Shown piece by piece: positions 266 to 23,882 of a DNA stretch of 37,374 nucleotides (the stretch's first letter is position 1; each line of letters starts with the position of its first letter). Origin of the DNA: Candidatus Aerophobota bacterium. Its GTDB lineage: Bacteria; Aerophobota; Aerophobia; Aerophobales; B3-G15. Location: the NCBI GenBank assembly GCA_030615365.1, contig JAUWZM010000019.1, forward strand, positions 1-37,374, given 5' to 3'. The notes beneath the pieces were generated by a model, which saw only the letters and a list, made by a program, of their open reading frames with translations, was not told the DNA's origin and made no database searches. Made by a program: the position numbers and the translations under genes.

Positions 266-281
266 TTATAGCTATCGTCAC

Positions 282-309: not shown

Positions 310-325
310 GTTCAATGATTGAACA
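309..325. promoter_or_regulatory. Palindromic operator candidate, copy 1
   Basis: TGTTCAAT-G-ATTGAACA is a perfect inverted repeat with 8-base arms around one central base. It begins on the last base of the -10 hexamer, where a bound repressor would block RNA polymerase. An identical palindrome apart from the centre base occurs at 1335-1351 in the same position relative to another promoter. Confidence 0.55.
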
Positions 326-352
326 AATAATAAATAAATGAGGTGATATAAA

Positions 353-1499: not shown

Positions 1500-2474
1500 A
1501 TGAGTCTTTCAGAAAAGATCATATTAGTAACTGGGGGAACCGGATCCTTTGGAAAAAAATTCACCGAGATTGTTTTAAAAGAGTATAATCCAAAAGTTAT
1601 CCGCATATTCTCCAGAGGAGAGCTAAAACAACAGAATATGCGCCAACAGTTCAATAATGATGAAAAACTACGTTTCTTCATTGGTGATGTTCGAGATAAA
1701 GACAGATTATACAGAGCAATGAATGGCGTTGATACTGTAATTAATGCTGCTGCTTTGAAGCAAGTCCCAGCATGCGAGTATAATCCTATCGAGGCGGTTA
1801 GAACAAACATTGACGGAGCAGTAAATGTAATTGATGCCGCCATTGATAACGGAGTAGAAGAAGCAATAACTATCAGCACTGATAAAGCTGTTCATCCGGT
1901 TAATCTATATGGAGCAACTAAATTAGTTGCCGAAAAACTATTTATCCAGGCAAATGCCTATGCTGGAGGAAGAAAAACTAAGTTTAGCTGTGTCCGCTAT
2001 GGAAATGTAGTCGGTAGCCGAGGTAGCATTGTCCCCCTGTTCTTAGAGCAGAAAAAAAATGCTAAAATTACCATCACTGATGAGCGGATGACCAGATTCT
2101 GGATTACATTAGAGCAAGGAGTTCGCTTTGTCATTGATTGCATCGAAAGAATGAAGGGCGGTGAAGTATTTATTCCCAAGATTCCGAGTATGAAAGTTAT
2201 TGATTTGGCAGATACAATTGCTCCGGAAGCTAAGAAAGAGATTATAGGAATTCGCCCTGGAGAGAAAATCAATGAAATCCTCCTTACCGAGGAAGAGGCA
2301 CGTCATGCTAAAGAATTTAATAATTTCTTTGTAGTTGAGCCAGAGCATCCCTTCTGGGGTCGGAATAATCTTAAAGAAGGGAAAACCCTCCTGGATGGCT
2401 TCAGATTCACAAGTGATTCCAATGGTTGGTGGCTAACAAAAGAAGAACTTAAAAAAATGATAGAGAGGCTCTGA
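1500..2474 (+). CDS. pseB: UDP-N-acetylglucosamine 4,6-dehydratase (inverting), PseB
   Basis: First enzyme of pseudaminic acid synthesis: it converts UDP-GlcNAc to the 4-keto-6-deoxy-L-arabino sugar with C5 inversion. The 324-residue protein is an extended SDR with the Rossmann motif GGTGSFG at 12-18, the dehydratase triad STDK with T127/D128/K129, and YGATK with Y137/K141. The FlaA1/PseB features INAAALKQVP and VRYGNVVGSRGSIVP are also present. Length matches the family (about 325-335). ATG 1500 lies nine bases after AAGGAG. It is the first gene of a long operon behind the promoter at 1307-1335. Its stop is immediately followed by the next ATG. PseC lies two genes downstream, which supports the inverting rather than a retaining role. 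Confidence 0.92.
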   Translation: MSLSEKIILVTGGTGSFGKKFTEIVLKEYNPKVIRIFSRGELKQQNMRQQFNNDEKLRFFIGDVRDKDRLYRAMNGVDTVINAAALKQVPACEYNPIEAVRTNIDGAVNVIDAAIDNGVEEAITISTDKAVHPVNLYGATKLVAEKLFIQANAYAGGRKTKFSCVRYGNVVGSRGSIVPLFLEQKKNAKITITDERMTRFWITLEQGVRFVIDCIERMKGGEVFIPKIPSMKVIDLADTIAPEAKKEIIGIRPGEKINEILLTEEEARHAKEFNNFFVVEPEHPFWGRNNLKEGKTLLDGFRFTSDSNGWWLTKEELKKMIERL

Positions 2475-3665
2475 ATGAACAAACTGGCGAGCAAAGAAGA
2501 TAAAATAACTTCTAAAAGACTATTCATCACTGGGATGTTTAGGTCAGGGACTACACTATTAGCTCGTGCCCTCAACGCCCATGAAAATATCAGTTTTGCT
2601 TCTGATCCCTTTTTTGAGTTTTTCAAGTATATTCGAGGCCAATATTATGTTAAAAAATACAAAAATTTTGATATGGATCAGCCTTTGAGTGATAAATTCC
2701 TGGAAGATAGCCAATTTAATAGCAAATTTACCAGCGATTTTTTGGGCATAAAATTGGGTCAGGAAGACTCTAAAATTTTTCTTGAAAGGATTTTCCAAGC
2801 AACCCAGGCTTTCTCTCCTGCAATTATCCCTTTACTCAAAAAAATAAAAATAGGCAAAGAAAGAAAAGTCGAGAATATCTTGAACGACTTGGTGGAATTG
2901 ATCATGGAAGCATATCCTAAAAGAAATATGGAAGTAGTTGGATTTAAAGAGGTTTGGCTCGAGGAGTTTATTGATCCCTTGTTGCAGATACCCGGTTTTT
3001 ATTCTTTGCAAATCATAAGAGATCCCAGGGCTATTATGGCTTCCAACAAAAGATCTTCTGGCGGAAAATATCCTATTCTGTTTTTAATCCGTCATTGGAG
3101 AAAAAGTGTTGCCTATTCAATGATTAATCAGGTAAATAAAAGGTATTTCAGAGTCAAATTTGAGGATTTAATAGAGGAACCAGAAAAATCTTTTAGAACA
3201 ATTTGCCAGTTTCTTAAAATCAAATACTCACCTAATTTAGTTGATTTTAACAAGTTTAAGAATGGTCAGGGTGAGCAGTGGTACCAGAATTCAAGTTATT
3301 CGAGTTTCAAGAAAAGCAAAGAATTTAACCAAAAAACTATAGATAAGTGGAAAAAAAACTTAAGCAGCAATGAAATCAAAATGATAGAATTGCTTTGCAA
3401 ACCAGAAATGAAATACCTTGGTTACGAATTAAGTAGCACAGAATTTAACTGCAAAATGTTGTTGGATTACAAAGATGACGAAGAAAAATTTGCCGATTGG
3501 ATAAAACAATACAATTTTAAATTAGACAATGAAAAAATGGAACAAGAAATCGTAAGAATTTTTTTACTGAAGAATCCTCGAATAGAGTGGGGTACTCATA
3601 TTTTAGAAAAGTTCTTTATTTCCAGGATTGTTTACGATAAACTCAAGGAATTCACTGATCAATGA
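2475..3665 (+). CDS. Sulfotransferase family protein
   Basis: The N-terminus has the PAPS-binding 5' loop RLFITGMFRSGTTLLARAL (residues about 15-33), and the middle has the 3'-phosphate motif LQIIRDPRAIMASNKRS. Both are hallmarks of sulfotransferases that move sulfate from PAPS to a sugar or lipid hydroxyl. At 396 residues it is longer than the minimal domain; the last 100 or so residues are not recognised. It starts at the base after the pseB stop and overlaps the next gene by four bases (ATGA), so it is part of the operon. The likely acceptor is the surface glycan, by context only. An APS reductase lies further down the cluster. Confidence 0.8.
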   Translation: MNKLASKEDKITSKRLFITGMFRSGTTLLARALNAHENISFASDPFFEFFKYIRGQYYVKKYKNFDMDQPLSDKFLEDSQFNSKFTSDFLGIKLGQEDSKIFLERIFQATQAFSPAIIPLLKKIKIGKERKVENILNDLVELIMEAYPKRNMEVVGFKEVWLEEFIDPLLQIPGFYSLQIIRDPRAIMASNKRSSGGKYPILFLIRHWRKSVAYSMINQVNKRYFRVKFEDLIEEPEKSFRTICQFLKIKYSPNLVDFNKFKNGQGEQWYQNSSYSSFKKSKEFNQKTIDKWKKNLSSNEIKMIELLCKPEMKYLGYELSSTEFNCKMLLDYKDDEEKFADWIKQYNFKLDNEKMEQEIVRIFLLKNPRIEWGTHILEKFFISRIVYDKLKEFTDQ

Positions 3666-4918
3666 CCTTAAAGACATTTATAAAGAAAACTTGGTTCCTT
3701 AACCGGGTTACAGTTGGGAAAGATACCAAATTTGTTTCCCAATTAATCCAGAAAGAATACGGAGGCAATTTTCATACTTTTGATTCGGGAGAGGAATGCT
3801 TAACCTGGATAATCCCAAAAGCCTGGGATGTTGAAGAGGCTCTATTGGTTAGTCCTAACGGGGAAAAGATAGCCGATTTTAATGAGAATCCATTGTCTTT
3901 ATGCTCTTATTCCATTCCTTTTCATGGTAAGCTTGAACTAAGAGAGCTAAAAGATCATCTCTACACTAATGATTTAGTTCCCACGGCTATTCCTTATCAT
4001 TATAGATGGCAATATCAATATGGAGAAAAATGCGATTGGGGTTTTTCTCTTCCTTTCAATATTTACAAGTCTCTCCGTGAAGGAGAATATGAGGTAAGAA
4101 TAAAAACGAATTTCAAGACAGGGAAAATGTATGTTAATGACATTTACCTTCCCGGCAAGAACAGTGAAACAGTGTTTTTTTGTGCCCATACCTGTCATCC
4201 AGCCATGGTTAATGATGGAATTGCAAATGTGGGAGTTGCTCTTAAGATATTAAAATATCTAAAATCCAAAGAAAATTCAAAGTACTCTTATCGGTTTATC
4301 TTTGGTCCTGAGTATTTCACGGGGGCAGCTTACTTATCCAGGTTTGGCAAAAACAATCTAAAATATGGGTTTTACTTGGATATGCTTGGTAACAATGAGC
4401 CTCTTTGTTTCTCAAAGTCCTTTGGGGAAGATTGTTACATTGATAAAGTTACCAAGATAGTTTTTAATAGTTTGCATAAGGATTATGTGGAGTATGACTA
4501 TAGAGGGATATGGGGTAATGATGAAATGTTTTATGATGGTCCTGGATTCCGTATTCCTATGGTTTGCATAGGAAGACAAAAATTCGCTAATTACCATTTT
4601 AGCGCTGATAATCTTCGAAACTGCAATTTCGAGTATTTGGGAGAAGCAAAAGATTTACTGATTAAAATTGTGGAAACAATAGAAAACGATAAAAAAATAA
4701 GATTGAAATACAAAGGCCCTTTGTATTTTTCCAGATACTACAATGAGATTTTCTCTAACAAAAATATTGCCAGTAATAAACTACAAGAAATACAAATACT
4801 GTTAGATAATGGGCTATTCTACAGTGAAATTGCCTATAAATTGGGTATTAGTTTTGAGGAGATTAAAAAGATTGGAAATTTATTGCTTAAATTAAGATTG
4901 GCTGAAGAAATCAAATAA
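3662..4918 (+). CDS. DUF4910 aminopeptidase-like protein with C-terminal winged helix
   Basis: The 418-residue protein has an M28-like zinc hydrolase core. Visible candidate ligands are H176/H179 in CAHTCHP, D185 in NDGIANVG, E217 in FGPEYFTG and H312 in NYHFSADN. The last 65 residues look like a helix-turn-helix (ILLDNGLFYSEIAYKLGISF). Proteins of this DUF4910 type recur in polysaccharide clusters, but no reaction is established for them. A deacylase or amide hydrolase acting on an amino sugar precursor is a reasonable guess given the metal site. The start overlaps the sulfotransferase stop as ATGA. Metal residues appear intact. Confidence 0.7.
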   Translation: MTLKTFIKKTWFLNRVTVGKDTKFVSQLIQKEYGGNFHTFDSGEECLTWIIPKAWDVEEALLVSPNGEKIADFNENPLSLCSYSIPFHGKLELRELKDHLYTNDLVPTAIPYHYRWQYQYGEKCDWGFSLPFNIYKSLREGEYEVRIKTNFKTGKMYVNDIYLPGKNSETVFFCAHTCHPAMVNDGIANVGVALKILKYLKSKENSKYSYRFIFGPEYFTGAAYLSRFGKNNLKYGFYLDMLGNNEPLCFSKSFGEDCYIDKVTKIVFNSLHKDYVEYDYRGIWGNDEMFYDGPGFRIPMVCIGRQKFANYHFSADNLRNCNFEYLGEAKDLLIKIVETIENDKKIRLKYKGPLYFSRYYNEIFSNKNIASNKLQEIQILLDNGLFYSEIAYKLGISFEEIKKIGNLLLKLRLAEEIK

Positions 4919-4945
4919 ATTTTCATAAAAAATAGAGGAATTTGA

Positions 4946-6145
4946 ATGAGTAAAGCACCAATTAGAAGCGTAGTGCTTAAAAAGCACAAGCTTTTGCCTT
5001 ATAGTCACCAGTGGGTTGATGACGAAGATATTAATGCGGTTATTAAATCATTGAAAAATGATTGGATTACTCAGGGTCCTAAGGTTGATGAATTTGAGCA
5101 AAAACTTGCCAATTATTGCGATGCAAAATATGCTGTAGCCCTCTCTTCGGGAACAGCGGCTCTGCATGCTGCATATTTTACTGCCGAGATTAAGGAAGGC
5201 GATGAAATAATAACCTCCCCCATTACTTTCTTAGCTACTACAAATGTGGCTTTATTCCTACGTGCTCATCCTATTTTTGTAGATATTGAAAAAGATACCG
5301 GAAATATTAATCTGGATTTAATAGAAAAAGCAATTACAGCAAAAACAAAGGCAATTGTCCCAGTGGATTATGGTGGACATCCGGTAGATTTAGAGAAAAT
5401 TTCAAAAATTGCTAAAAAACACAATTTATTGGTAATAGAGGATGCTTGCCATGCATTGGGAGCGAAATATAAAGGTGGAAAGATAGGCAGTTACAGGTAT
5501 TCAGATATGACTGTTTTCAGTTTCCATCCTGTAAAATCAATTACCACTGGTGAAGGAGGAGCAGTTCTAACAAATAACAAGACCTACTATGAAAAACTTA
5601 TAATGTTTAAACATCACGGGGTAACAAAGGATAAGACTGAATTTAAAAATAATCTTAACCCTATCCTCGGAGATTGGTATTATGAGATGCATCTTTTGGG
5701 TTACAATTATAGATTAACCGATATTCAATGTGCTTTGGGGATATCTCAATTAGGAAAATTAGATAAATTCATCCAGAGAAGAAGAGAAATTGTGGAAATT
5801 TATAAAGATGCGTTTAGAAACAATGATTTTTTTGGTTTGCCACAAGAGAAAGACTACGCAAAGTCTTCATGGCATTTATATCCCATTAGATTAAAAGATA
5901 AGTATAAAAATAAAAAGAGGGAAATTTTTGCAAGATTAAGAGAAGAGGGCTTAGGTGTTCAGGTGCACTACATTCCTGTTTACTGGCAGCCTTATTATCA
6001 AGAATTAGGATATAAAAAGGGAGTCTGTCCAAATGCTGAGGATTTTTATCAAAGAGAGATAAGTATTCCTCTGTATCAATCAATGAGTGAAGAAGATATT
6101 GAGTATGTCGTTAATACTATTTTAAAAGTATTTGAGGAAATTTAA
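4946..6145 (+). CDS. pseC: UDP-4-amino-4,6-dideoxy-N-acetyl-L-altrosamine transaminase, PseC
   Basis: Second pseudaminic step: PLP-dependent transfer of an amino group from glutamate to C4 of the PseB product. The 399-residue protein is of the DegT/DnrJ/EryC1 family, with the Schiff-base lysine K197 in FSFHPVKSITTGEGG, D166 in VIEDACHALGA, and SSGTAALHAAY at 67-77. It has the PseC-type N-terminus (LPYSHQWVDDEDINAVIKSL). A ribosome site AGAGGAA precedes the ATG. The gene lies 27 bases after the DUF4910 gene and 5 bases before the class III aminotransferase. Together with pseB it commits the locus to the L-altro series, whose C4 amine becomes N7 of pseudaminic acid. Confidence 0.9.
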   Translation: MSKAPIRSVVLKKHKLLPYSHQWVDDEDINAVIKSLKNDWITQGPKVDEFEQKLANYCDAKYAVALSSGTAALHAAYFTAEIKEGDEIITSPITFLATTNVALFLRAHPIFVDIEKDTGNINLDLIEKAITAKTKAIVPVDYGGHPVDLEKISKIAKKHNLLVIEDACHALGAKYKGGKIGSYRYSDMTVFSFHPVKSITTGEGGAVLTNNKTYYEKLIMFKHHGVTKDKTEFKNNLNPILGDWYYEMHLLGYNYRLTDIQCALGISQLGKLDKFIQRRREIVEIYKDAFRNNDFFGLPQEKDYAKSSWHLYPIRLKDKYKNKKREIFARLREEGLGVQVHYIPVYWQPYYQELGYKKGVCPNAEDFYQREISIPLYQSMSEEDIEYVVNTILKVFEEI

Positions 6146-6150
6146 ACAAG

Positions 6151-7437
6151 ATGAAAGAATTTAAGCAAGATAGTTTTTTGTTCGAAAAAGTAAGAAAGAT
6201 TATACCTTTGGCTTCCCAAACCCTGAGCAAAAGTTATTTGCAGTATACTGTTGGGGCATCTCCTCTTTTTATTGAGAAGGGAAAAGGAGCTTATGTTTGG
6301 GACATAGATGGCAATAAATATCTTGATATGGTCAACGCCTTATTGCCAGTTATCCTGGGCTATCGGTACCCAATCGTTGATAAAGCAATCAAACAACAAC
6401 TCAAAAAAGGAATTAGTTTTTCCTTACCTTCACCTTTAGAGTATGAGTTGTCTAAAGAACTAATTGAATTAATCCCTTGTGCTGAAATGGTTCGTTTTGG
6501 TAAAAATGGCTCTGATGCTACTGCGGGTGCCGTAAGATTGGCAAGGGCGATTAGTGGAAAAGACAGAATGGCTGTTTGTGGTTATCATGGCTGGCAAGAT
6601 TGGTATATAGGGGTGAATCCCCGCAATGAAGGAGTTCCAGCTTGCGTAAGAGAATTAACTCATAAGTTTGGATACAATAACATTGAATCATTAGAAAAAT
6701 TGTTTAACGAATATAAGAATCAGTTTGCAGCGGTTATAATGGAACCTATGAACAAAGAAGAACCCAAAAATAATTTCTTAGAAGAGGTAAAGGAATTGAC
6801 CCACAAAAACAAAGTGCTCTTAATTTTTGATGAGATGGTTACTGGTTTTAGGTTTAGCTTGGGAGGAGCTCAAGAGTATTTTAATACTACACCCGATTTA
6901 GCCTGTTTTGGGAAATCTATGGGAAACGGCGTGCCAATTTCAGCAATAGTAGGCAGAAAAGAGTATATGAGAAAGATGGAAGATATTTTTTACTCCTTCA
7001 CCTTTGGTGGAGAGTGCCTTTCTTTAGCCGCAAGTTTAGCTACTATTAAAGAGATCAAAGAAAAGAGAGTTATCGAACATATTTGGCAGGAGGGTAAATA
7101 TTTAAAAGGTAAAACAGAAGACCTTATAAAAGGTAATAGCCTGGGTGATGTCTTGGAGATCTCTGGTAAACCTTGTTGGCAAATATTCACAATAAAAGAC
7201 TATGAAGATTGTTCCTCTCTTGAGATCAAGACTTTTATTCAGCAAGAATTAATAAAAAAAGGGGTGCTTTGGACAGGAAGCCACAATATGAGTTTCAGTC
7301 ACAAGAGAAAGGATTTAGATAAACTAATAAAGAGCTATCAAGAAGTTTTTCCGCTTTTGAAAGAGGTTCTGGACAATAAAGTCTTGAAGAAAAAACTTTT
7401 AGGAAAAACGATTCCTGGCAATTATAGAATCAGGTAA
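6151..7437 (+). CDS. Class III aminotransferase / aminomutase (GSA-aminomutase-like)
   Basis: This 428-residue PLP enzyme resembles glutamate-1-semialdehyde 2,1-aminomutase: WDIDGNKYLDM near residue 50, YHGW at 145-148, FDEMVTGFR with D227, and the Schiff-base lysine K255 in LACFGKSMGNGVPI. It is probably not the haem-pathway HemL, because it sits inside a sugar operon with no haem genes. Class III members in such clusters probably aminate or isomerise a keto-sugar or an amino-sugar acid, but the substrate is not known to me. It lies 5 bases after pseC and 4 bases before the Gfo/Idh gene, so co-translation is likely. Confidence 0.75.
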   Translation: MKEFKQDSFLFEKVRKIIPLASQTLSKSYLQYTVGASPLFIEKGKGAYVWDIDGNKYLDMVNALLPVILGYRYPIVDKAIKQQLKKGISFSLPSPLEYELSKELIELIPCAEMVRFGKNGSDATAGAVRLARAISGKDRMAVCGYHGWQDWYIGVNPRNEGVPACVRELTHKFGYNNIESLEKLFNEYKNQFAAVIMEPMNKEEPKNNFLEEVKELTHKNKVLLIFDEMVTGFRFSLGGAQEYFNTTPDLACFGKSMGNGVPISAIVGRKEYMRKMEDIFYSFTFGGECLSLAASLATIKEIKEKRVIEHIWQEGKYLKGKTEDLIKGNSLGDVLEISGKPCWQIFTIKDYEDCSSLEIKTFIQQELIKKGVLWTGSHNMSFSHKRKDLDKLIKSYQEVFPLLKEVLDNKVLKKKLLGKTIPGNYRIR

Positions 7438-7441
7438 GATT

Positions 7442-8431
7442 ATGGAAAAGGATAGGAAAATAATAATTATTGGTTTTGGCTCAATTGGGAGGAGGCACTA
7501 TCAGAATCTATTAAAACTCAGGTATAAAAATGTTTATGCTTATGATATTGACCCCAAAAAAATTCCTCCAAGAGCAAGAACTATTTCAAAGCTAACCGCT
7601 AAAGAACTCGGTCCTTTTAGAATAGTTTTCATTTGCACCCCTACCCATTTACATATCAAAACTGCTTTAATGGCCGCTGAAGCTAAATGCTATCTTTTTA
7701 TTGAAAAGCCTCTTTCTCATAATCTAAGGAATATTGAGAAATTAATTGAGGTTTGCCAGAAGAATAAACTGAAAACAATGATTGCTTGCAACCTAAGGTT
7801 TAATCCTTGTCTTAGGAAGATAAAGGAACTTCTTGATAGTGGTTACCTTGGGAGAGTATATGCTATTTATCTGGATTACGGTCGTTACCTACCCTATCAG
7901 CGCTTAGAGGTTGATTATAGAGAGATATATGCTGCTAACAAAAAAATGGGTGGGGGTATAATTCTGGACGATATCCATGACTTTGATTTGCTTTTTTGGT
8001 TCAACAATTTTAAAAAAGTAAAAAGAACCAATATTATCTTTGACAAACTTAGTAATCTAAAAATTGATGTTGAAGATATTGCCAATATCACCTTTCTCTT
8101 TGAAAACAGGGTTTTAGGTAATATCAGATGCGATTATCTTCAAAAGCGAAAACAGAGAAGCTGCAGGATTATTGGAGAGAACGGGAACCTTGCCTGGGAT
8201 TTTAGAGAAAATGCAGTTTATTTTGAATATTTTGACAAAAATCGAGTGGGAGGTGCAAGAGAGCAAAAAAAAAAGATTTTTCAAGCTTCCCTCTTTGATT
8301 CTAATAATATGTATATTGATGAGATTAAATATTTTCTCAGGATGGTAAAAAGTTCACAAGATACTTTCAATAACCTAAAAAAAGCTCAGGAGCTTTTGAA
8401 GGTAATATTAAAGAATAAACAGGAATTATGA
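7442..8431 (+). CDS. Gfo/Idh/MocA family oxidoreductase
   Basis: The 329-residue protein begins with a Rossmann fold (IIIIGFGSIGRRHYQNL) and carries the family signature EKPLSHN with E88-K89-P90. The C-terminal half is the beta-sheet substrate domain, with DDIHDFDLLFWF in the place of the usual catalytic histidine helix (GGGIILDDIHD). Family members oxidise or reduce sugars or sugar nucleotides with NAD(P). Paired with the upstream aminotransferase it could oxidise a hydroxyl that is then aminated, by inference. Its stop overlaps the next ATG by four bases. Confidence 0.85.
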   Translation: MEKDRKIIIIGFGSIGRRHYQNLLKLRYKNVYAYDIDPKKIPPRARTISKLTAKELGPFRIVFICTPTHLHIKTALMAAEAKCYLFIEKPLSHNLRNIEKLIEVCQKNKLKTMIACNLRFNPCLRKIKELLDSGYLGRVYAIYLDYGRYLPYQRLEVDYREIYAANKKMGGGIILDDIHDFDLLFWFNNFKKVKRTNIIFDKLSNLKIDVEDIANITFLFENRVLGNIRCDYLQKRKQRSCRIIGENGNLAWDFRENAVYFEYFDKNRVGGAREQKKKIFQASLFDSNNMYIDEIKYFLRMVKSSQDTFNNLKKAQELLKVILKNKQEL

Positions 8432-9195
8432 AGAATCAGATTTTTCTTCAAGCTAGGATGGGCTCTACCAGGTTGCCGGGTAAGGTTCTGTTGCAAATAA
8501 ATGGAAAAACAATTATTGAGATTCTCGTAGAAAGAGTGAAAAAAATTAACGATATTGAGAAGATTATTATTGTGACTACAAAAAATAAAAGGGACGACTA
8601 CCTTATAAGAGAGGCTAAAAGATTAAAGTTGGCTTACTTTCGGGGAAGCGAAGAGAACGTTCTGGACAGATTTTTCAAAGCCAGCTTGGAGTTCAAGCCA
8701 GATAATATAATAAGAATTACCGGGGATTGTCCTTTAATGGATTTTGACTTAATAACTCGAGGACTAAAGATTTTCAAGAAGGGAGATTGCGATATTTTGA
8801 GTAATCATCGAATGAGGACTTTTCCTGATGGCATAGATTTTGAAGTATTTAAAGCTAGCGCCCTTAAAATTGCCTGGGATGATAATTTCATAAAATCCAA
8901 TGAGGATAGGGAGAGATTTGATAGAATCTTTTTACCTCCCACTAGCTACCTTCTCAGCAAAAAGAAGTTTAAACATAAAGATTTGATCTCTAAAAAGAAT
9001 TTAGCCCATATCAGGTTGACGATAGATTACAAAGAGGATTTTGACCTAATAAAAATAATCTACCAGAGTCTTTCTAAACAAAACAAATACTTTATCTTGA
9101 AAGATATTCTAAGATTCCTAAAGAACAATGCTCAACTTTTGAATCTAAACAAAAAATACATCTGCCTGGATTACGGATTGAGAATCGAAGAATAG
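8428..9195 (+). CDS. SpsF-like cytidylyltransferase (probable nonulosonic acid activation)
   Basis: The 255-residue protein opens with the nucleotidyltransferase loop QARMGSTRLPGKVLLQINGK and has RITGDCPLMD as its metal-binding segment near residue 95. This is the CMP-Kdo synthetase-like family of SpsF in Bacillus spore coat synthesis, where it is encoded with NeuB-, PseC- and PseG-like proteins. The best proposal is activation of the nonulosonic acid as its CMP form, filling the PseF role. It overlaps the Gfo/Idh gene by four bases. A decayed NeuB fragment follows at once, suggesting the original order was SpsF then NeuB. Confidence 0.75.
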   Translation: MKNQIFLQARMGSTRLPGKVLLQINGKTIIEILVERVKKINDIEKIIIVTTKNKRDDYLIREAKRLKLAYFRGSEENVLDRFFKASLEFKPDNIIRITGDCPLMDFDLITRGLKIFKKGDCDILSNHRMRTFPDGIDFEVFKASALKIAWDDNFIKSNEDRERFDRIFLPPTSYLLSKKKFKHKDLISKKNLAHIRLTIDYKEDFDLIKIIYQSLSKQNKYFILKDILRFLKNNAQLLNLNKKYICLDYGLRIEE

Positions 9196-9199
9196 TTTT

Positions 9200-9408
9200 A
9201 TGACAAATTAAAGTTGAGGAAAAATAATTGGTGAGGTAAAATCTTGTTTCATCTTTAGTTGAAGTAGAAGCAACTTATGCCGGGTAGAAGCGCCAAAACG
9301 TTATTGAAAATGCTAGCTAATCATAGCAAAGGTGCAGCTAAATTTCAAACTTTCTTAACTGATGATGTCGATAAAATGACGAGCAAAAATCTAGCTTCTT
9401 TAATCTGA
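9200..9408 (+). pseudogene. Decayed N-terminal fragment of a NeuB-family synthase
   Basis: Pieces in different frames match the start of the intact NeuB-family gene at 11466. CTTGTTTCAT at 9244-9253 equals the same string in that gene. Next comes VEVEATYAG (9258-9284), corresponding to VEPGATHTG. After a frameshift, an ORF from ATG 9277 to TGA 9406 reads SAKTLLKML..GAAKFQTFLTDD..MTSKN, corresponding to SAKKLAKIS..DAVKFQTIETDE..MSSKD. At least two frameshifts are needed and the remaining three quarters of the gene are gone. It is therefore a relic of a third NeuB paralogue. Confidence 0.75.
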
Positions 9409-9421
9409 AGAAGCTAGATTT
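9387..9421 (+). terminator. Perfect 14-base stem-loop
   Basis: AAATCTAGCTTCTT (9387-9400) and its exact reverse complement (9408-9421) enclose a 7-base loop. It overlaps the end of the NeuB relic and precedes the amidotransferase ribosome site by about 30 bases. The stem is AT-rich and lacks a T-run, so it may be a weak terminator, an mRNA-processing hairpin, or the scar of a deletion. Confidence 0.45.
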
Positions 9422-9462
9422 AAAGAATTTAGTTTGATAAAATTAATTTGGGAGGTAAACTC

Positions 9463-10581
9463 ATGAGATATTGCAGAAAATGTGTCCAACCAGATACAAG
9501 ACCGAAGATATATTTCAATCAAGAGGGTATTTGTGGCGCTTGTTTGTGGGAAGAAGAAAAGAAGAAAATTGACTGGGAAAAACGGATAAAGGAGCTTGAA
9601 GAAATAACTGAATGGGCAAAAAAAGAGGCAAAAAGCCGAGGTACTTATGATTGTGCTCTGGGGGTAAGTGGTGGTAAAGACACCACATTCACCGCATTAT
9701 ACGCTAAAGATAAGTTAGGTTTGAACTGTTTGCTCGTTAATGCTGCCCCAGCCCAGATAACCGAGATAGGTCAGCACAACATAGATAATCTGTTGAGTCT
9801 GGGCTTTGATATGATAACCCTCAAGGTCAATCCGAAGGTCTTGAGGAAGCTGATAAAAAGGGATTTCTATAAATACCTTAACAGTAGCAAGCCTACTGAG
9901 TATATCCTCTGGTCAAGTACTTTTCGCATAGCTCTTTCTTATAATATCCCTCTGATTATACAGGGAGAGAATGAAGCCCTGACGCTGGGAGTAAGGGAGG
10001 GACTCAACTTAGATGGCGATGCAATGGGAGTGCGTAAAATCAATACTCTGGCAGGTGGTGATGCGTTTAAGGAATATATAGGAGACGGGATTGAGAAGAA
10101 AGACTTGTTAATGTATCAATTCCCTGACCCTAAATTATTTCAAGAGGCAGATATCCGAGCTATCTATTTACAATATTATGCTAAAGAGTGGTCTCGTGTA
10201 GGCAATGCAGAGTTTGCAATCAAGTATGGTATGAAACTAAGAGATGATGATTTACATAATCTGGGTAGGATACACAGGTTTTGCCAGTTGGACTCTGATT
10301 TTCATATGGTCAACCAGATGTTTAAATTCGTAAAACTTGGCTTTGGCTTTGCCACAGATGAGGTCTGCTATGATATAAGGGAAGGTCGGATTACGAGGGA
10401 AGAGGGCTTTAAACTCATTAAGGAGTATGATGGTCTGTGTGGGGATAAGTATATCAAGGGATTCTGTGATTATATAGGAATTGATGTTAAGGAATTTTGG
10501 CGAGTGGTGGAGAGATTCAGGGATGAAGAATTGTTTGAAAAGACAAATGGGAAATGGAGACTAAAAAGTAATCATCAATAA
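9463..10581 (+). CDS. N-acetyl sugar amidotransferase (PseA/WbpG family)
   Basis: ATP-PP-loop enzyme that puts an amidino or related nitrogen group on N-acetyl sugars, usually with a glutaminase partner or free ammonia. Visible are a zinc site from C4, C7, C24 and C27 (MRYCRKC..GICGAC) and the PP-loop GVSGGKDT at 67-74. The sequence IQGENEALTLG is also typical. PseA converts Pse5Ac7Ac to its acetamidino form in Campylobacter, so this fits the pseudaminic context. I place the start at ATG 9463, seven bases after GGGAGGT (9450-9456); the in-frame TTG at 9448 lies in front of that site. No HisH/HisF-type partner is seen nearby. Confidence 0.87.
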   Translation: MRYCRKCVQPDTRPKIYFNQEGICGACLWEEEKKKIDWEKRIKELEEITEWAKKEAKSRGTYDCALGVSGGKDTTFTALYAKDKLGLNCLLVNAAPAQITEIGQHNIDNLLSLGFDMITLKVNPKVLRKLIKRDFYKYLNSSKPTEYILWSSTFRIALSYNIPLIIQGENEALTLGVREGLNLDGDAMGVRKINTLAGGDAFKEYIGDGIEKKDLLMYQFPDPKLFQEADIRAIYLQYYAKEWSRVGNAEFAIKYGMKLRDDDLHNLGRIHRFCQLDSDFHMVNQMFKFVKLGFGFATDEVCYDIREGRITREEGFKLIKEYDGLCGDKYIKGFCDYIGIDVKEFWRVVERFRDEELFEKTNGKWRLKSNHQ

Positions 10582-10601
10582 AAACGGAGTAAAGAATTTA
10601 A

Positions 10602-11360
10602 ATGATTAAATACGGAATAAAACTCTGGAGCTCGAATAAGAAGCTTTTAGAGCAATCCATTGATCTATTTAAAGAAAAGAAAATTGATTTTGTAGAAGTT
10701 TATACGGTCTTTAATTCATTTAAGTTAGAGAAACTGGAAATTCTTAGGGAACTCCCTGTCATTCTTCATGCTCCTCATTCTAAGCACAATTTTAATGTTC
10801 TTCAGTTGGGTGAACTAAAGATAAAATTATTTAATAATCTGGTTACTAAGATGGCAGATCTTTTGGATTCAAAATACATCATTTTACACGCTGGGATCGG
10901 TCAATCTCAAGAGATGTTTAAGAAAAATATCAACAAAATCTACGACCAAATAATTCTGATAGAAAACATGCCCAAGTTGGCTTTAAGTGGTAAAATTTGT
11001 TTCGGCTATAGCTTAAAACAACTTGAATTTATTAAGAATGCTTGTGGACTGAACATCTGTTTGGATTTAGCTCATGCCATTAAGAGTGCTGTGTCTCAAA
11101 ATATAGATTACAGAGAGTATATAGAATTGTTGATTTCTAAATTGAATCCTTTCTATTTCCATATTTGTGGAGGCGAAACCAGTAACGAGAAAGATGAGCA
11201 TCTTAATCTTAGCCAGGGAGACTTTGACTTTAAATGGATTAAAAAAATGATTTTACGTTTAGCTGAAAAGAAAAACATATATTTAGTGTTTGAAGTACCT
11301 AAGGAAGGAGGTAGTTTAAAAAATGATACTAGAAATATTGATTATTTTGCAGGGATTTAG
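10602..11360 (+). CDS. Xylose isomerase-like TIM-barrel protein
   Basis: The 252-residue protein has the order of strands and metal-site motifs of the AP endonuclease 2 / xylose isomerase-like barrel: VILHAPHSKHNF, YIILHAGIG, LIENMP, ICLDLAHAI, YFHICGG and VFEVPKEGG near the C-terminus. Acidic and histidine residues at these strand ends usually bind divalent metals for sugar isomerisation or epimerisation, or for phosphodiester cleavage. In a sugar cluster an isomerase or epimerase role is more likely than DNA repair. It lies 20 bases after the amidotransferase gene. The substrate is unknown. Confidence 0.75.
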   Translation: MIKYGIKLWSSNKKLLEQSIDLFKEKKIDFVEVYTVFNSFKLEKLEILRELPVILHAPHSKHNFNVLQLGELKIKLFNNLVTKMADLLDSKYIILHAGIGQSQEMFKKNINKIYDQIILIENMPKLALSGKICFGYSLKQLEFIKNACGLNICLDLAHAIKSAVSQNIDYREYIELLISKLNPFYFHICGGETSNEKDEHLNLSQGDFDFKWIKKMILRLAEKKNIYLVFEVPKEGGSLKNDTRNIDYFAGI

Positions 11361-11365
11361 CGGGA

Positions 11366-11392
11366 ATTCCTCATCTCCGCAGGTGAGGATGA
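11366..11392 (+). terminator. Hairpin between TIM-barrel gene and NeuB-family gene
   Basis: CCTCATCTCCGCAGGTGAGGATGAG can pair as CTCATC/GATGAG or as CCTCA/TGAGG, just past the stop at 11360. It precedes a new promoter at 11418-11426, which suggests a transcription boundary. No T-run follows directly. Confidence 0.4.
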
Positions 11393-11417
11393 GAACAAGT
11401 GCACATCTTTTCTATTT

Positions 11418-11426
11418 TGATATAAT
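11418..11426 (+). promoter_or_regulatory. Extended -10 promoter before the NeuB-family gene
   Basis: TGATATAAT is an ideal extended -10 (TG-N-TATAAT). The -35 region about 17 bases upstream is weak, as is common for this class. The NeuB-family ATG is at 11466 behind TAGGAGA. It would drive the second half of the nonulosonate cluster independently. Confidence 0.5.
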
Positions 11427-11465
11427 AAAAAAGATGAAAACGTTTCATTAATATAGGAGATATAA

Positions 11466-12509
11466 ATGAGAACAGTTAAGCAAGTGAAAATTGGGGACAA
11501 AATTGTGGGAGATGGCTATCCTTGTTTCATTTCAGTTGAGCCAGGGGCTACTCACACTGGATTGGAAAGTGCAAAGAAATTGGCTAAAATATCTAAAGAG
11601 GCAGGTGCTGATGCAGTAAAGTTTCAAACGATAGAGACAGATGAGATAATGTCCTCCAAAGATATGGAGATAGAATATCAGACGCCAAATGGTAAAAGAA
11701 AGGAAAGTATATATGCTGCATTAAAGAGGAGAGAGCTTAGTTTTGATGAATGGAAGGAATTGAAAAGATACTGTGATAATTTAGGAATCTTGTTTATCTC
11801 TACTCCCAGTGGAGCCCGTACTGTAGATTTACTTGCAGAGATGAAAGTAGCGGCTATCAAAGTATCTAAATCTGATGTGAATAACCGTTATCTGATAAAG
11901 TTGATTGCAGAAAAAGGGTTGCCGGTTATCATGGATGCAAGGGAAAAATTTGAAGATGTGGAAAATGGTATTAGAATCTTAGAAGAAAAAGGTATCAAGG
12001 ATATTATTATAATGCATTGCCCCTCGGGATATCCGGCAGAGTATGCAGGAATACATTTAAGTGTTATTCCTTATATTAAAGGGATATTTGGCTATCCGGT
12101 TGCCTATTCCGATCATTCGGTGGGTGATTACATGAATTATGTTGCTTTAGGAATGGGAGCAAATTTTTTAGAGAAAACTATTTCTCTGAATAAATCCACC
12201 AATGCGGTAGAGCACTATATGTCTTTAGAACCCGAAGAGGTAACCCAATTTGTAAGGAAAATCCGCAAAATAGAACAAGCCTTTGGAAACCCCAGAATAA
12301 TTTTCAATTCCAGGGTAAAAAAGGAAAACCGAAGAAGTATTATGTCCGCTCGAAAGATTAAAAAGGGGAAAATTATAGAAGAAGAAGATTTGGCCTTTAA
12401 ACGACCAGGTATCCATTTATCTGTGGAGCGGTACGAAGAAGCAATAGGGAAAAAAGCTGCTCGTGATATAGAAGCAGATATCTTTATCTCTGAAAATGAT
12501 TTTGAATGA
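11466..12509 (+). CDS. NeuB-family nonulosonic acid synthase with SAF domain
   Basis: Condenses phosphoenolpyruvate with a hexosamine to form a nine-carbon acid (sialic, legionaminic or related). The 347-residue protein has the NeuB barrel: SVEPGATHTG, AGADAVKFQT, ISTPSG, IKVSKSD, and the metal/PEP region AYSDHSVGD. The EKTISLNKS segment is where sialate synthases have EKHFTLD. The C-terminal 60 residues form a SAF (antifreeze-like) domain (SARKIKKGKIIEEEDLAFKRPG). It is clearly different from the PseI at 14855, with SDVN replacing the usual S-x-E-x-x-N, so it may use another acceptor. Its end overlaps the kinase gene by 14 bases. Confidence 0.85.
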   Translation: MRTVKQVKIGDKIVGDGYPCFISVEPGATHTGLESAKKLAKISKEAGADAVKFQTIETDEIMSSKDMEIEYQTPNGKRKESIYAALKRRELSFDEWKELKRYCDNLGILFISTPSGARTVDLLAEMKVAAIKVSKSDVNNRYLIKLIAEKGLPVIMDAREKFEDVENGIRILEEKGIKDIIIMHCPSGYPAEYAGIHLSVIPYIKGIFGYPVAYSDHSVGDYMNYVALGMGANFLEKTISLNKSTNAVEHYMSLEPEEVTQFVRKIRKIEQAFGNPRIIFNSRVKKENRRSIMSARKIKKGKIIEEEDLAFKRPGIHLSVERYEEAIGKKAARDIEADIFISENDFE

Positions 12510-13437
12510 ACCTTTACTAAAAAAATATTTGCGAGAATTTTATTTAGAAAAAGGAGAGAGTATTTCTTCTTTCAATGAAGCAAATGGTTATGCTATTAAC
12601 TCGCAGAATTTCGTTATCACTTTATCTTCAGGGAGACAGTTGTTTTTGAAGATTATTAAAGATTATAATAAAATCACTTTAACTAAATTAAAAATTTTAA
12701 ATGAGTGTTTTAAAAAGAAAGTAAAAGTCTTGGAGATAATAAAAGGCAGAAGAGGTGAGCTTTACATTACTAAGGAAAACTTTCTATTGGTGGTGTTCAG
12801 GTATTATTTGGGAGCGAAATGTCAATTTACATCCGAGCAAATATTCTCTGCCGGTGAAAATTTAGCTCGTTTAAATCAGCAGCTTATCTACTTTAATTAT
12901 ATTTTTAAGCGCAGTAAATTATATAACGATTTAAATGTGGAGGAAATTGAACAAATAGTACAGAGCAGTAATAGGGATGATAATTTTATCCAAAAAGCTT
13001 TTTCGATATCCCAAAAATTACTGAATCTATACAAGTGCATTAATGAAAAGCTTAATTCTAAAAGAAATAGTACACAACTTGTACATATGGATTACCATAC
13101 TCAAAATGTTCTATTTAAAAACCGGGAAGTAGAAGTGATACTTGATTTTGACTTTGTAGTAACAGCACCAAAATTACTATCTATTGGTTTTGCTTGTGAT
13201 AGATTTTCAAGAGATATTGAAGAAATGGGGTTATTTCTTGAAGGATACAGAAAAATAGATAAGACTTTGTCTTCCGAACTGTTAAAACTTATTCCCTTTT
13301 ACGCTAAGAGGGAAGCTCTGCATAGGATAAATTATATACTACGAAGACATTTTTTTCATAAAGACAGGAAGTGGGATTTTGAATTAGATAAACAGGTTGG
13401 CATTTTGCAAGGAATAGATAATGAATGTAAGCTATAA
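12496..13437 (+). CDS. APH-fold phosphotransferase (sugar or small-molecule kinase)
   Basis: The 313-residue protein shows the aminoglycoside phosphotransferase / homoserine kinase II fold. Ordered motifs are an ATP lysine K52 in LFLKII, the catalytic loop H197-M-D199-Y-H-T-Q-N204 and the metal motif D217-F-D219. All key residues are present. Antibiotic resistance is unlikely given its position; it probably phosphorylates a sugar or amino-alcohol precursor, as HSK-type kinases do in other glycan clusters. It starts inside the last codons of the NeuB-family gene (14-base overlap), which implies tight coupling to that synthase. Confidence 0.75.
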   Translation: MILNEPLLKKYLREFYLEKGESISSFNEANGYAINSQNFVITLSSGRQLFLKIIKDYNKITLTKLKILNECFKKKVKVLEIIKGRRGELYITKENFLLVVFRYYLGAKCQFTSEQIFSAGENLARLNQQLIYFNYIFKRSKLYNDLNVEEIEQIVQSSNRDDNFIQKAFSISQKLLNLYKCINEKLNSKRNSTQLVHMDYHTQNVLFKNREVEVILDFDFVVTAPKLLSIGFACDRFSRDIEEMGLFLEGYRKIDKTLSSELLKLIPFYAKREALHRINYILRRHFFHKDRKWDFELDKQVGILQGIDNECKL

Positions 13438-13466
13438 AATAATATGTTTTTGGGGGAAATTCTAAA

Positions 13467-14147
13467 ATGGATCAGGAGACCATTAGAAAACAGAATATAG
13501 AGTTTTTGATAGATGAATCTGATTATTTTCTTGATTGGGCTTTTGCTGAGTTTAAAGAAAAAGTTTTTGCTACCACTGCTTTTGGTGCCAATGGGTTGGT
13601 TTTGTTAGATCTAATTAAGAAGAAAAAAAGGGATATGCCTGTTTATTTTATTGACACTGGTTACCATTTTTCAGAAACCCTGGAAATCAAGGAGCATTAC
13701 AAGAAACAAGGTTTTAATATTATAGAGTTAAACTCTACTGTCGATGACCGGGAGAATTTACTTCAAAAATTTGGGTCAGATATATGCTGCCGGATAAGGA
13801 AAGTAGAGCCTCTAAGGAATCTCATGAAAGAAAAACAAGGTCATCTGTGGATAACTGCTCTTAGCTGGGATCAATCCGAAACACGTCGAAACATTAGATT
13901 TTTAGAACCTCAGGATAATAGTATTGTCAAATTCAACGCGATGCTTGCCTGGAAAGAAGACCAAATATGGCAGTATATACGAGAACATAACTTAACTTAC
14001 AACAAGCTTTATAATAAAGGTTACAAAAGTATTGGCTGTAAGCCTTGCACAACTCCGGTAGAGGATGAAGAGGATGGCCGAGCAGGGCGCTGGAGAGGAA
14101 GCGATAAAAAGGAATGTGGGTTGCATGTTCCTTTAAAAGGTGATTGA
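13467..14147 (+). CDS. cysH: Adenylylsulfate (APS) reductase, CysH family
   Basis: Reduces activated sulfate to sulfite. In 226 residues it has the iron-sulfur ligand pairs C107-C108 (DICCRIRKVEPL) and C191/C194 (SIGCKPCTTPVEDEEDGRAG), and the catalytic cysteine C217 in KKECGLH. The CC..CxxC pairs are the mark of the [4Fe-4S] APS-type reductase as opposed to the cluster-free PAPS type. It is intact. Assimilatory CysH normally sits with cysND, cysI or cysK; here the neighbours are an APH-fold kinase and a formyltransferase. Either it is a passenger or its sulfite feeds a sulfonated sugar, which is speculation. Confidence 0.87.
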   Translation: MDQETIRKQNIEFLIDESDYFLDWAFAEFKEKVFATTAFGANGLVLLDLIKKKKRDMPVYFIDTGYHFSETLEIKEHYKKQGFNIIELNSTVDDRENLLQKFGSDICCRIRKVEPLRNLMKEKQGHLWITALSWDQSETRRNIRFLEPQDNSIVKFNAMLAWKEDQIWQYIREHNLTYNKLYNKGYKSIGCKPCTTPVEDEEDGRAGRWRGSDKKECGLHVPLKGD

Positions 14148-14252
14148 TCGGTGCTATCTTGTCGGCATTATGCCAATGAAATGTAGGAAAATAACTTGTT
14201 TTGGTGGAAAGGGAAGTCTAAAGGATAGCAAATGTTTTAATAGGGGATTCTA

Positions 14253-14858
14253 ATGAAAGTCGTGTTTCTTTCGAATAATAAGATTTCTAATAATCTTATT
14301 AGTTGGCTCAAGACTACATCTGGAGAGGATGTAATTACTTATAATAAACCTGTAAGCACAGAGTTTCTAAAAAAGATATGTCCTGACTTTATAATCAGTT
14401 ACAATTACAAGTATATAATTAAAGAGGAAGTAGTAGATCGTATGAAGGGTAGAATTATTAATTTGCATATTTCATTACTTCCATATAACAGAGGAGCAGA
14501 TCCAAACGCATGGAGTTTCTTGGAAAGCACACCGAGGGGCATCACTATACATATGATAGACAAAAGCATAGATAAAGGACCCATTCTGGTACAAAAAGAA
14601 GTGTTCATCAACGAAAATAAGGAAACATTAAGAAGTTCTTATGAAAAGCTACATAAAGAAATTCAGGAACTTTTCAGGAGCTACTGGAATGACATTAAAT
14701 ACGAAAAAATAAAACCAAAACCACAGAATTCAAAGGGAAGCATGCACCATAAGAAAGATTTTAAAAAAATAGAGTATCTTTTAAGTGATAAAGGATGGGA
14801 CACACCCATTATGGAATTCAAGAAAAGATACGAAAGTTTAATTAGGGGACTAAGATAA
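14253..14858 (+). CDS. Formyltransferase family protein (sugar N-formyltransferase candidate)
   Basis: The 201-residue protein has the formyltetrahydrofolate-dependent transferase core: INLHISLLPYNRGADPNAW with N70 and H72, and D107 in IDKGPIL, giving the N-H-D catalytic set. It is far shorter than methionyl-tRNA formyltransferase (about 310) and lacks that C-terminal domain, so a role in making an N-formyl amino sugar is more likely. N-formyl groups are known on nonulosonic acids. It lies 105 bases after cysH, behind AGGGGATT. Its stop overlaps the probable start of pseI. Confidence 0.78.
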   Translation: MKVVFLSNNKISNNLISWLKTTSGEDVITYNKPVSTEFLKKICPDFIISYNYKYIIKEEVVDRMKGRIINLHISLLPYNRGADPNAWSFLESTPRGITIHMIDKSIDKGPILVQKEVFINENKETLRSSYEKLHKEIQELFRSYWNDIKYEKIKPKPQNSKGSMHHKKDFKKIEYLLSDKGWDTPIMEFKKRYESLIRGLR

Positions 14859-15901
14859 ATCTGGAAATAGCAAATAAAAAAATAGGCAAAGATTTCCCGG
14901 TTTTCGTAGTAGCCGAGCTTTCTGCAAATCATCTGCAAAAATTTGACAATGCAGTGAAACTTATTAAAGCTGCAAAAAAGGTGGGGGCAGATGCTATAAA
15001 ATTGCAGACCTATACGCCAGAAACAATGACAATTGATTGTGATAATGAATACTTTCAGATAAGGCAAGGGACTATATGGGACGGGAAGACTTTTTATCAA
15101 CTTTATAAACAAGCTTACACCCCCTGGGAATGGCAACCAAAATTAAAGGAAATTGCACAGGAAATGGGTTTAATTTTATTTTCAACACCCTTTGATAAAA
15201 CTGCCGTCGATTTTCTTGAAGAATTAAATGTCCCTTGTTATAAAGTAGCGTCATTTGAAATAACCGATGTCCCACTTATAGAATATATAGCATCAAAAGG
15301 CAAGCCTGTAATTATTTCCACGGGAATAGCAACATTATGTGATATAGAAGAAGCTGTAGGCACTTGCAAAAAAGTTGATAATAATCAAATAGCTTTGCTT
15401 AAGTGCACAAGTGCATATCCCACACCCCCGGAGGATACAAATTTGCGAACCATTCCAAACTTGGCAGAAACTTTTAAAGTGGTTGTAGGTCTATCTGATC
15501 ATACACTGGGCGTCTCTGTTCCCATTGCTTCTGTAGCACTTGGAGCTTGCATAATAGAGAAACACTTAACACTAAATAGATCATTCGGTGGCCCGGATGC
15601 TGCTTTTTCCTTAGAACCTGATGAGTTCAGAGCAATGGTAAAAGCAGTAAGAGAAGTTGAAAAAGCTTTGGGAGAAGTTTCGTATGAGTTAACTGAAAAA
15701 ATGAAAAAAAGTAGAGAATTTTCCCGCTCTCTGTTTGTTACAAAAGATATGAAAGCAGAAGAAATCTTTACCAAAGAAAATGTTCGCTCTATAAGACCTG
15801 GATATGGATTGTATCCAAAGTATTTAAAAGATATTCTGGGTAGACGGGCAGCACATGATATTAGATGTGGAACGCCCTTAGGATGGAGAATGATTTCATA
15901 A
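14855..15901 (+). CDS. pseI: Pseudaminic acid synthase PseI (non-ATG start)
   Basis: Condenses 2,4-diacetamido-2,4,6-trideoxy-L-altrose with PEP to give pseudaminic acid. Homology begins well before the first GTG (14954): the frame encodes KKIGKDFPVFVVAELSANH, the standard PseI beginning. The frame is open back to 14846 with no ATG, GTG or TTG there. ATA at 14855, six bases after AGGGG, gives 348 residues, the usual length, and overlaps the upstream TAA as ATAA; CTG 14861 is the alternative. Other marks are KLQTYTPETMTID, FSTPFDKTAVDFLE, SFEITDVPLIEY, EKHLTLNRSFGGPD and a SAF domain ending in GWRMIS. Confidence 0.88.
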   Translation: MNLEIANKKIGKDFPVFVVAELSANHLQKFDNAVKLIKAAKKVGADAIKLQTYTPETMTIDCDNEYFQIRQGTIWDGKTFYQLYKQAYTPWEWQPKLKEIAQEMGLILFSTPFDKTAVDFLEELNVPCYKVASFEITDVPLIEYIASKGKPVIISTGIATLCDIEEAVGTCKKVDNNQIALLKCTSAYPTPPEDTNLRTIPNLAETFKVVVGLSDHTLGVSVPIASVALGACIIEKHLTLNRSFGGPDAAFSLEPDEFRAMVKAVREVEKALGEVSYELTEKMKKSREFSRSLFVTKDMKAEEIFTKENVRSIRPGYGLYPKYLKDILGRRAAHDIRCGTPLGWRMIS

Positions 15902-16090
15902 TATTGGTGTGTCTTCCAGTGAGATAATGTAGATAGTATAATCAGATTTGAGTTATTTAATCATCAGATAGATGTATGTTAAAAATTTGAGCACGCAGAG
16001 CGCAGGGTTTCAGTATCCCAAGAAATTGTTAGGGTAGTGAAGGAAATTCAGTGAGAACGGATTTGTTTAGTTCCACAAGGATTATGAGCC

Positions 16091-23857: not shown

Positions 23858-23882
23858 CAAGCTTACTACAAAGGAGTCCACA

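What the first reader, a model, noticed from the sequence alone, without database searches (positions are those of the whole stretch)
1500..15901. Nonulosonic acid cluster with unusual content and no visible PseG or PseH
PseB, PseC, an SpsF-like cytidylyltransferase, a PseA-type amidotransferase and PseI are present, but I see no UDP-sugar hydrolase or N-acetyltransferase. In their place are a DUF4910 hydrolase, a class III aminotransferase, a Gfo/Idh enzyme, a TIM-barrel protein, an APH-fold kinase, an APS reductase and a formyltransferase. N-formylation could replace the acetylation of PseH, and the DUF4910 or kinase proteins could supply an alternative to PseG. A new pseudaminic-type acid or a second parallel acid is possible.
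Basis: inference. Interest (0 to 1): 0.7.

Follow-up and report, generated by a model that had tools for sequence, protein, structure and literature searches.

The report
Formyl-pseudaminic locus with odd second NeuB
This stretch of an unnamed microbe's DNA looks like a gene set for an unusual surface sugar (a formylated relative of pseudaminic acid), and beside the normal sugar-making enzyme it carries a second, conserved version whose active site has been rebuilt, which may mean a step of sugar chemistry not yet described.

Summary
The gene list is mostly right. PseB, PseC, PseI, an SpsF-like CMP-transferase, a PseA/WbuX-type amidotransferase and a DUF4910 protein are present; no PseG or PseH is detectable on this 37,374-base contig. 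The cluster appears to run off the right end and no whole genome is held, so genome-wide absence is untested. The formyltransferase is a PseJ homologue, so formylation in place of PseH has a named precedent. The kinase is a poor PseG substitute: it shares its locus with PseG in 6 of 10 relatives.

Its clade (39 of 118 compared; SH-aLRT 100) is spread patchily over archaea, candidate-phylum bacteria and Proteobacteria, with a canonical NeuB/PseI found nearby in 31 of 39 loci. All 39, and 240 of 240 listed homologues, have Asp at the position of NeuB Ser154 and lack the His at 236 (roles recalled), while other active-site residues are kept. The window's branch adds an APH-fold kinase; four loci add an APS-reductase-like CysH, a class III aminotransferase and a Gfo/Idh enzyme. 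NeuB2's reaction is unknown.

The parts
1500..2474 (+). PseB, UDP-GlcNAc 4,6-dehydratase (inverting)
   Evidence: TIGR03589 above cut-off
   Evidence: PF13469 and PF00685 above cut-off; motif GMFRSGTT
3662..4918 (+). DUF4910/DUF2172 protein, Cj1295/CA_C2195 family
   Evidence: PF16254, PF09940; PDB 3k9t E = 3e-51
4946..6145 (+). PseC aminotransferase
   Evidence: TIGR03588 above cut-off
6151..7437 (+). class III aminotransferase / aminomutase-like, PLP lysine motif FGKSMGNG
   Evidence: PF00202, PRK06209 model below cut-off, motif
7442..8431 (+). Gfo/Idh/MocA oxidoreductase
   Evidence: PF01408, PF22725
8428..9195 (+). SpsF-like CMP-ulosonate transferase, the only candidate for PseF in the cluster's Pse part
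   Evidence: PF02348; PDB 6oew E = 2e-31
9448..10581 (+). WbuX/PseA-type amidotransferase
   Evidence: TIGR03573 above cut-off
10602..11360 (+). xylose-isomerase-like TIM-barrel protein
   Evidence: PF01261
11466..12509 (+). NeuB2: second NeuB-family protein with SAF domain, changed metal and phosphate positions
   Evidence: PF03102 + PF08666; below both NCBIfam equivalog cut-offs; clade and residues; model
12496..13437 (+). APH-fold kinase overlapping NeuB2 by 14 bases
   Evidence: PF01636; HMDYHTQN...DFD
13467..14147 (+). CysH-type reductase with CC..CxxC and ECGLH motifs
   Evidence: PF01507, PRK02090 and TIGR00434 above cut-off, TIGR02055 below; motifs
14253..14858 (+). PseJ-type N-formyltransferase
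   Evidence: PF00551; PDB 6ci2 'formyltransferase PseJ' E = 8e-48
14861..15901 (+). PseI, pseudaminic acid synthase; start probably CTG 14861, not GTG 14954
   Evidence: TIGR03586 above cut-off; upstream open frame with AELSANH
16091..17596 (+). flippase (Wzx-like)
   Evidence: PF13440
17605..19473 (+). possible glycosyltransferase (weak LIC12162-family match)
   Evidence: TIGR04331 27 bits, far below cut-off
19677..20450 (+). Kdo-type CMP-transferase
   Evidence: NF009905, TIGR00466 above cut-off

Best explanation
The region is the left part of a surface-glycan gene cluster. Its first branch makes a pseudaminic-type acid that is N-formylated instead of N-acetylated: PseB and PseC make the 4-amino sugar nucleotide, the PseJ-type enzyme formylates it, an unseen PseG (probably past the contig end or elsewhere) removes UDP, PseI adds pyruvate from PEP, and the SpsF-like enzyme adds CMP; DUF4910, the amidotransferase and the sulfotransferase tailor it. 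Into this branch is set a second module: NeuB2, a kinase, CysH, a class III aminotransferase and a Gfo/Idh enzyme. NeuB2 most likely still joins a three-carbon donor to an N-acylated sugar or a smaller aldehyde, in a metal-independent or rearranged-metal way, on a substrate prepared by the kinase, and its product enters the same CMP-activation step or is used on the Pse unit. Shown by sequence: gene identities, clade, residue changes, linkage. Inferred: every reaction, the place of PseG, the role of each module gene.
Against: No reaction was tested. PseG is absent from the contig and no match was found in G002 and G010, only an 18-bit match in G003; completeness of those genomes is not told. 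The changed Asp157 would be expected to repel a PEP phosphate (inference), so a PEP synthase role is doubtful. The kinase motif as I wrote it matches 10 of 16 kinase sequences, not the other 6. The aminotransferase is not significantly commoner beside NeuB2 (10 of 38 against 5 of 42, p = 0.15). DUF4910, sulfotransferase and TIM-barrel protein are not linked to NeuB2 in other loci (0 of 38 each). CysH adjoins NeuB2 in only 3 of 38 other loci.
Confidence: 0.5

Rival explanations
1. NeuB2 no longer does the NeuB reaction: it is an isomerase, lyase or other tailoring enzyme that acts on the same N-acylated sugars or on the finished acid, inside the Pse pathway.
For: Both the second His of the metal site and the Ser at position 154 are replaced throughout (roles of these two residues recalled, and a paper's list of 13 key NmeNeuB residues, passages of PMC6795526, names neither); canonical synthase found nearby in 31 of 39 loci; one CMP-transferase in 29 of 37 loci; compact operons such as L031 PseB-PseC-NeuB2-CMP-transferase-PseG-PseJ-PseI.
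Against: Most other active-site residues and the SAF-domain Arg are kept; loss of a metal ligand without loss of synthase function is known in the related Kdo8P synthases (recalled).
Confidence: 0.3
2. Ordinary: a PseJ-type Pse cluster with PseG beyond the contig end; NeuB2 is just a divergent synthase of a second known acid, and the other genes are unrelated tailoring genes collected in a surface-glycan locus.
For: Window is the whole contig (37,374 bases) and its last ORF, 36110-37231, is still a sugar aminotransferase; PseG is in the same operon in the closest fetched relative L004 (L004:7234-8310); several window genes are not conserved with NeuB2.
Against: The coordinated residue changes are fixed across 240 of 240 listed homologues from two searches and the clade is single, which is more than drift.
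Confidence: 0.35
3. The module makes a sulfonated product: CysH makes sulfite for it, the kinase activates a hydroxyl, and the aminotransferase-fold enzyme or NeuB2 places the sulfonate.
For: CysH in the window, L002, L003 and L004 has CC..CxxC and ECG[IL]H, the APS reductase signature (recalled motif); in the small genomes G002 (archaeon) and G003 (candidate-phylum bacterium) no sulfite reductase match passes the cut-off and the strong CysH match is the one in this locus; one NeuB2 homologue, P0022, is fused to a ferredoxin-like domain and its source names it APS reductase beta subunit.
Against: No ATP-sulfurylase (PF01747) in G002 or G003 either, so a source of APS is not seen; PF01747 is also missing in other genomes of the 20, so this is weak both ways; CysH is absent from most NeuB2 loci and the TIGR02055 APS reductase cut-off is not reached.
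Confidence: 0.15
4. NeuB2 is a non-catalytic partner of PseI, for example in a mixed dimer.
For: Co-occurrence with canonical NeuB/PseI; NeuB dimers share active sites through the SAF domain (passages of PMC6795526).
Against: Catalytic-type residues are nearly invariant, unlike a dead partner; no partner interface was modelled.
Confidence: 0.07
5. DUF4910 or the kinase replaces PseG.
For: PseG is absent from the contig; L002 and L003 also carry the kinase and show no convincing PseG.
Against: Kinase and PseG share a locus in 6 of 10 relatives; DUF4910 is in none of the 80 loci, and its relative Cj1295 acts in an organism with a complete Pse pathway (PMC3068675).
Confidence: 0.04

Closest known systems
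Pseudaminic acid pathway (PseB, PseC, PseH, PseG, PseI, PseF; described in passages of PMC5109656)
   Same: PseB, PseC and PseI are above their curated cut-offs
   Different: No PseH or PseG on the contig; CMP-transferase is SpsF-like, not PseF-like
Formyl variant with PseJ (PDB 6ci2/6ci4; organism and reaction recalled, paper not read), and Geobacillus islands with formyltransferases and without PseH (passages of PMC5109656)
   Same: PseJ homologue lies directly before PseI
   Different: Extra module with NeuB2, kinase and CysH; PseG not seen
NeuB / PseI / SpsE synthases (1xuu, 8h2c, 1vli)
   Same: Whole-length fold, Glu25, Lys52, Lys132, Asp216-His217, Glu236, Arg313
   Different: His236 to Thr, Ser154 to Asp, Asp247 to Glu, Glu134 to Asp; in the window's branch also Lys135 and Arg159; below both equivalog cut-offs
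Cj1295 / CA_C2195 (DUF4910) in sugar loci (PMC3068675, PMC4000134)
   Same: Same Pfam families, full-length match to 3k9t
   Different: No acyl-glyceroyl product is known here
N-formyl-legionaminic acid of Halorubrum sp. PV6 (passages of PMC6137143)
   Same: A formylated nonulosonic acid with a predicted formyltransferase gene in the cluster
   Different: Legionaminic, not pseudaminic, pathway

Membership tests
CMP-pseudaminic acid pathway | PseB and PseC | tested here: met
   TIGR03589 497 bits (cut-off 408), TIGR03588 525 bits (cut-off 424)
CMP-pseudaminic acid pathway | PseI | tested here: met
   TIGR03586 480 bits (cut-off 340)
CMP-pseudaminic acid pathway | PseH N-acetyltransferase | tested here: not met
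   No GNAT on the contig; rest of genome not testable. In 32 related genomes TIGR03585 is over cut-off in 0, but weak GNAT matches occur in 29, so the model is a poor detector
CMP-pseudaminic acid pathway | PseG UDP-sugar hydrolase | tested here: not met
   Not on the contig; rest of genome not testable
CMP-pseudaminic acid pathway | PseF CMP-transferase | tested here: inconclusive
   Only SpsF-like and Kdo-type CMP-transferases found
PseJ-type formyltransferase | Closest to PseJ, with NxHxSxxP and downstream Asp motif | tested here: met
   6ci2 E = 8e-48; NLHISLLP and IDKSIDKGPI (their catalytic role is recalled)
PseJ-type formyltransferase | Formylates the PseC product | not testable with these tools
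   needs enzyme assay
NeuB/PseI synthases (NeuB2) | TIM barrel plus SAF domain | tested here: met
NeuB/PseI synthases (NeuB2) | Curated equivalog score (TIGR03569, TIGR03586) | tested here: not met
   265.6 of 399.65 and 193.9 of 340.25 bits; six clade members all below both
NeuB/PseI synthases (NeuB2) | Two His of the metal site | tested here: not met
   His217 kept, second His replaced; metal role of His236 recalled
APS/PAPS reductase (CysH) | CC..CxxC and ECGxH motifs | tested here: met
   motif recalled
APS/PAPS reductase (CysH) | Curated score | tested here: inconclusive
   PRK02090 and TIGR00434 above, TIGR02055 below cut-off
WbuX/PseA amidotransferase system | HisH/HisF-type ammonia partners beside it | tested here: not met
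   No such domain among 30 Pfam-scanned window ORFs; partners recalled

The most novel reading that the evidence does not exclude
NeuB2 founds a new kind of NeuB-fold enzyme, conserved in bacteria and archaea, that carries out a step other than the known Mn/PEP condensation in pseudaminic-type pathways; in the window's branch it works with a kinase and, in some loci, a sulfite-making CysH, to build a phosphorylation-dependent, perhaps sulfonated, nonulosonic acid or side group.
Probability: 0.2. Interest if true: 0.85.

Novelty: new variant of a known kind. Interest (0 to 1): 0.55.

Why it matters
Pseudaminic-type acids coat flagella, capsules and S-layers, and gene content is used to predict which acid a microbe makes. 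A conserved second NeuB with a changed active site would be annotated simply as N-acetylneuraminate synthase (as sources do for its relatives) and would mislead such predictions. If it does new chemistry, it opens a testable route to unknown surface sugars in archaea and uncultivated bacteria. If it is only a metal-independent synthase, it is still a clean natural experiment in how this enzyme family loses its metal.

Tried and rejected
Rejected or weakened: (1) DUF4910 or kinase as PseG (see rivals). (2) PseG hidden in the window: three queries, full sensitivity, nothing. (3) CysH as ordinary sulfur assimilation in the window: cannot be judged without the genome; in G002 and G003 no sulfite reductase passes the cut-off. 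(4) Sulfonated product: kept only as a rival because no APS source was seen. (5) An 8-epimerase like EpaA/EpaB (passages of PMC12053666): those are a CMP-transferase/aldo-keto reductase fusion and a short-chain dehydrogenase, so not the Gfo/Idh or NeuB2 type; the window has an SDR at 23847-24617, not followed up. (6) More NeuB2 loci by phylum: 0 of 285 further genomes in the phylum of G003 and 0 of 299 in that of G008 (E limit 1e-60), 0 of 384 in that of G618 (no positive control) and 0 of 394 further in that of G004 (E limit 1e-90). (7) Viral contigs: one 30% relative (L088, not studied); phages: no match at E 1e-40; plasmids: four matches at 32-34%, not studied.

Literature: searches (PMC open-licence papers only). 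None of the listed titles and abstract openings describes such a NeuB paralogue, but most subscription papers are not held and full texts were mostly not read, so this is weak evidence that it is unpublished.


Full report
What is there. Thirty ORFs of the window were scanned with Pfam, and 20 plus 9 with NCBIfam. From 1500 to 17596 lie 15 genes on one strand, with gaps of at most 252 bases: PseB, sulfotransferase, DUF4910, PseC, class III aminotransferase, Gfo/Idh, SpsF, WbuX/PseA, TIM-barrel protein, NeuB2, APH-fold kinase, CysH, formyltransferase, PseI, flippase. Behind them come a Kdo-type CMP-transferase, glycosyltransferase-like proteins, a CDP-glucose branch (29824-31595) and radical SAM proteins. 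The protein database gives 37,374 as the length of the contig of NeuB2, so the window is probably the whole contig, and its last ORF is still a sugar aminotransferase. No whole genome is held.

PseG and PseH. No PseG on the contig and no GNAT. In 32 genomes that hold NeuB2 relatives, PseG has a match in 28 and one over the cut-off in 25. Of the ten genomes of the window's branch, seven have a match with E below 1e-30 (G001, G004-G009; G006 is under the cut-off), G003 has an 18-bit match, G002 and G010 have none. PseH (TIGR03585) is over its cut-off in 0 of 32, with weak matches in 29; in the 14 control genomes it rings in 13 and passes in 1, so this model says little.

Formylation. The formyltransferase aligns to PseJ at E = 8e-48; the next sugar formyltransferase apart from the gramicidin synthase domain is at 1.6e-16. 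PseJ's reaction and organism are recalled. In L004 and L031 a PseJ-like gene lies between PseG and PseI. In L002, an archaeal contig, PseC and PseI are followed by a formyltransferase, a 5-formyl-THF cyclo-ligase and an SHMT gene, a likely C1 supply line (inference). Geobacillus islands without PseH and with formyltransferases are in print (passages of PMC5109656), as is N-formyl-legionaminic acid (passages of PMC6137143).

DUF4910. It matches CA_C2195 (3k9t) along its length. Cj1295, named in PMC3068675 (abstract, sections 12 and 16 read) as needed for di-O-methylglyceroyl-Pse, belongs to the family that the same paper lists in C. acetobutylicum. It is a tailoring gene candidate, not a PseG candidate. 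It was found in 0 of 80 loci here.

Neighbours. A canonical NeuB/PseI of 280 aa or more lies in 29 of 39 NeuB2 loci (28 of 38 as labelled, plus L019), and just past the end of two more (L016, L032): 31 of 39. The other eight are L009, L011, L013, L015, L017, L033, L036 and L052, several of them short or cut by a contig end. Around a canonical NeuB a second one was found in 6 of 42 loci. PseB: 23 of 38 against 12 of 42 (p = 0.006); PseC: 23 of 38 against 14 of 42 (p = 0.02); aminotransferase 10 of 38 against 5 of 42 (p = 0.15); Gfo/Idh 11 of 38 against 7 of 42; SpsF 8 of 38 against 13 of 42; kinase 8 of 38 against 0 of 42; CysH 3 of 38 against 0 of 42. A profile of the kinase finds all eleven loci of the window's branch (L009 as a fragment, L005 weakly) and no other; most of these sequences were used to build it. 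In a protein search the kinase had only 8 clusters, three on contigs of the same length as NeuB2 homologues. Twenty-nine of 37 loci show one CMP-transferase, four none, four two or more; some query ORFs there were named by similarity only.

CysH. The window, L002, L003 and L004 share CC..CxxC and ECG[IL]H, and these four loci also hold the aminotransferase and Gfo/Idh. In 20 genomes, sulfite reductase passes the cut-off in 17, not in G002, G003 and G007; ATP-sulfurylase PF01747 is found in 9, not in G002 or G003. This fits a local use of CysH but leaves its substrate without a source.

Reading. The formyl-Pse branch is a known kind. NeuB2 with its fixed residue changes and its company is the part that known pathways do not explain. 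I think a metal-changed synthase is a little more likely than a wholly new reaction, and I cannot tell whether its product is a second acid or a group placed on the first. The single CMP-transferase in most loci leans to the latter.

Noticed in passing
window 354-1039: A PIN-domain protein (545-1039, PF01850) follows a short ORF ending at 544 that looks like a DUF104-type antitoxin (recalled); a likely toxin-antitoxin pair at the left edge of the cluster.
   Followed up: no
window 20685-22586: One ORF joins a family 2 glycosyltransferase to a zinc-type alcohol dehydrogenase, an unusual fusion.
   Followed up: no
window 29824-31595: Glucose-1-phosphate cytidylyltransferase (TIGR02623 above cut-off) followed by a CDP-glucose 4,6-dehydratase-like gene (below cut-off): a CDP-sugar branch.
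   Followed up: no
window 27073-28566 and 34655-36097: Two B12-binding radical SAM proteins in the same cluster.
   Followed up: no
window 24745-24990: 81-aa ORF with a weak match to the C-terminal part of HisC/CobD, perhaps a gene remnant.
   Followed up: no
L002:243-2583: Formyltransferase, 5-formyl-THF cyclo-ligase and SHMT genes next to PseC-PseI in an archaeal contig.
   Followed up: partly
L003:5964-7028: DUF218 domain fused to a GNAT domain between PseI and the aminotransferase.
   Followed up: no
P0022: NeuB2 homologue with an N-terminal ferredoxin-like domain, named APS reductase beta subunit by its source.
   Followed up: no
window 180-330 and 1190-1340: Degenerate repeats of the kind 'ctaagaactaagagctat' in the non-coding left edge.
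   Followed up: no
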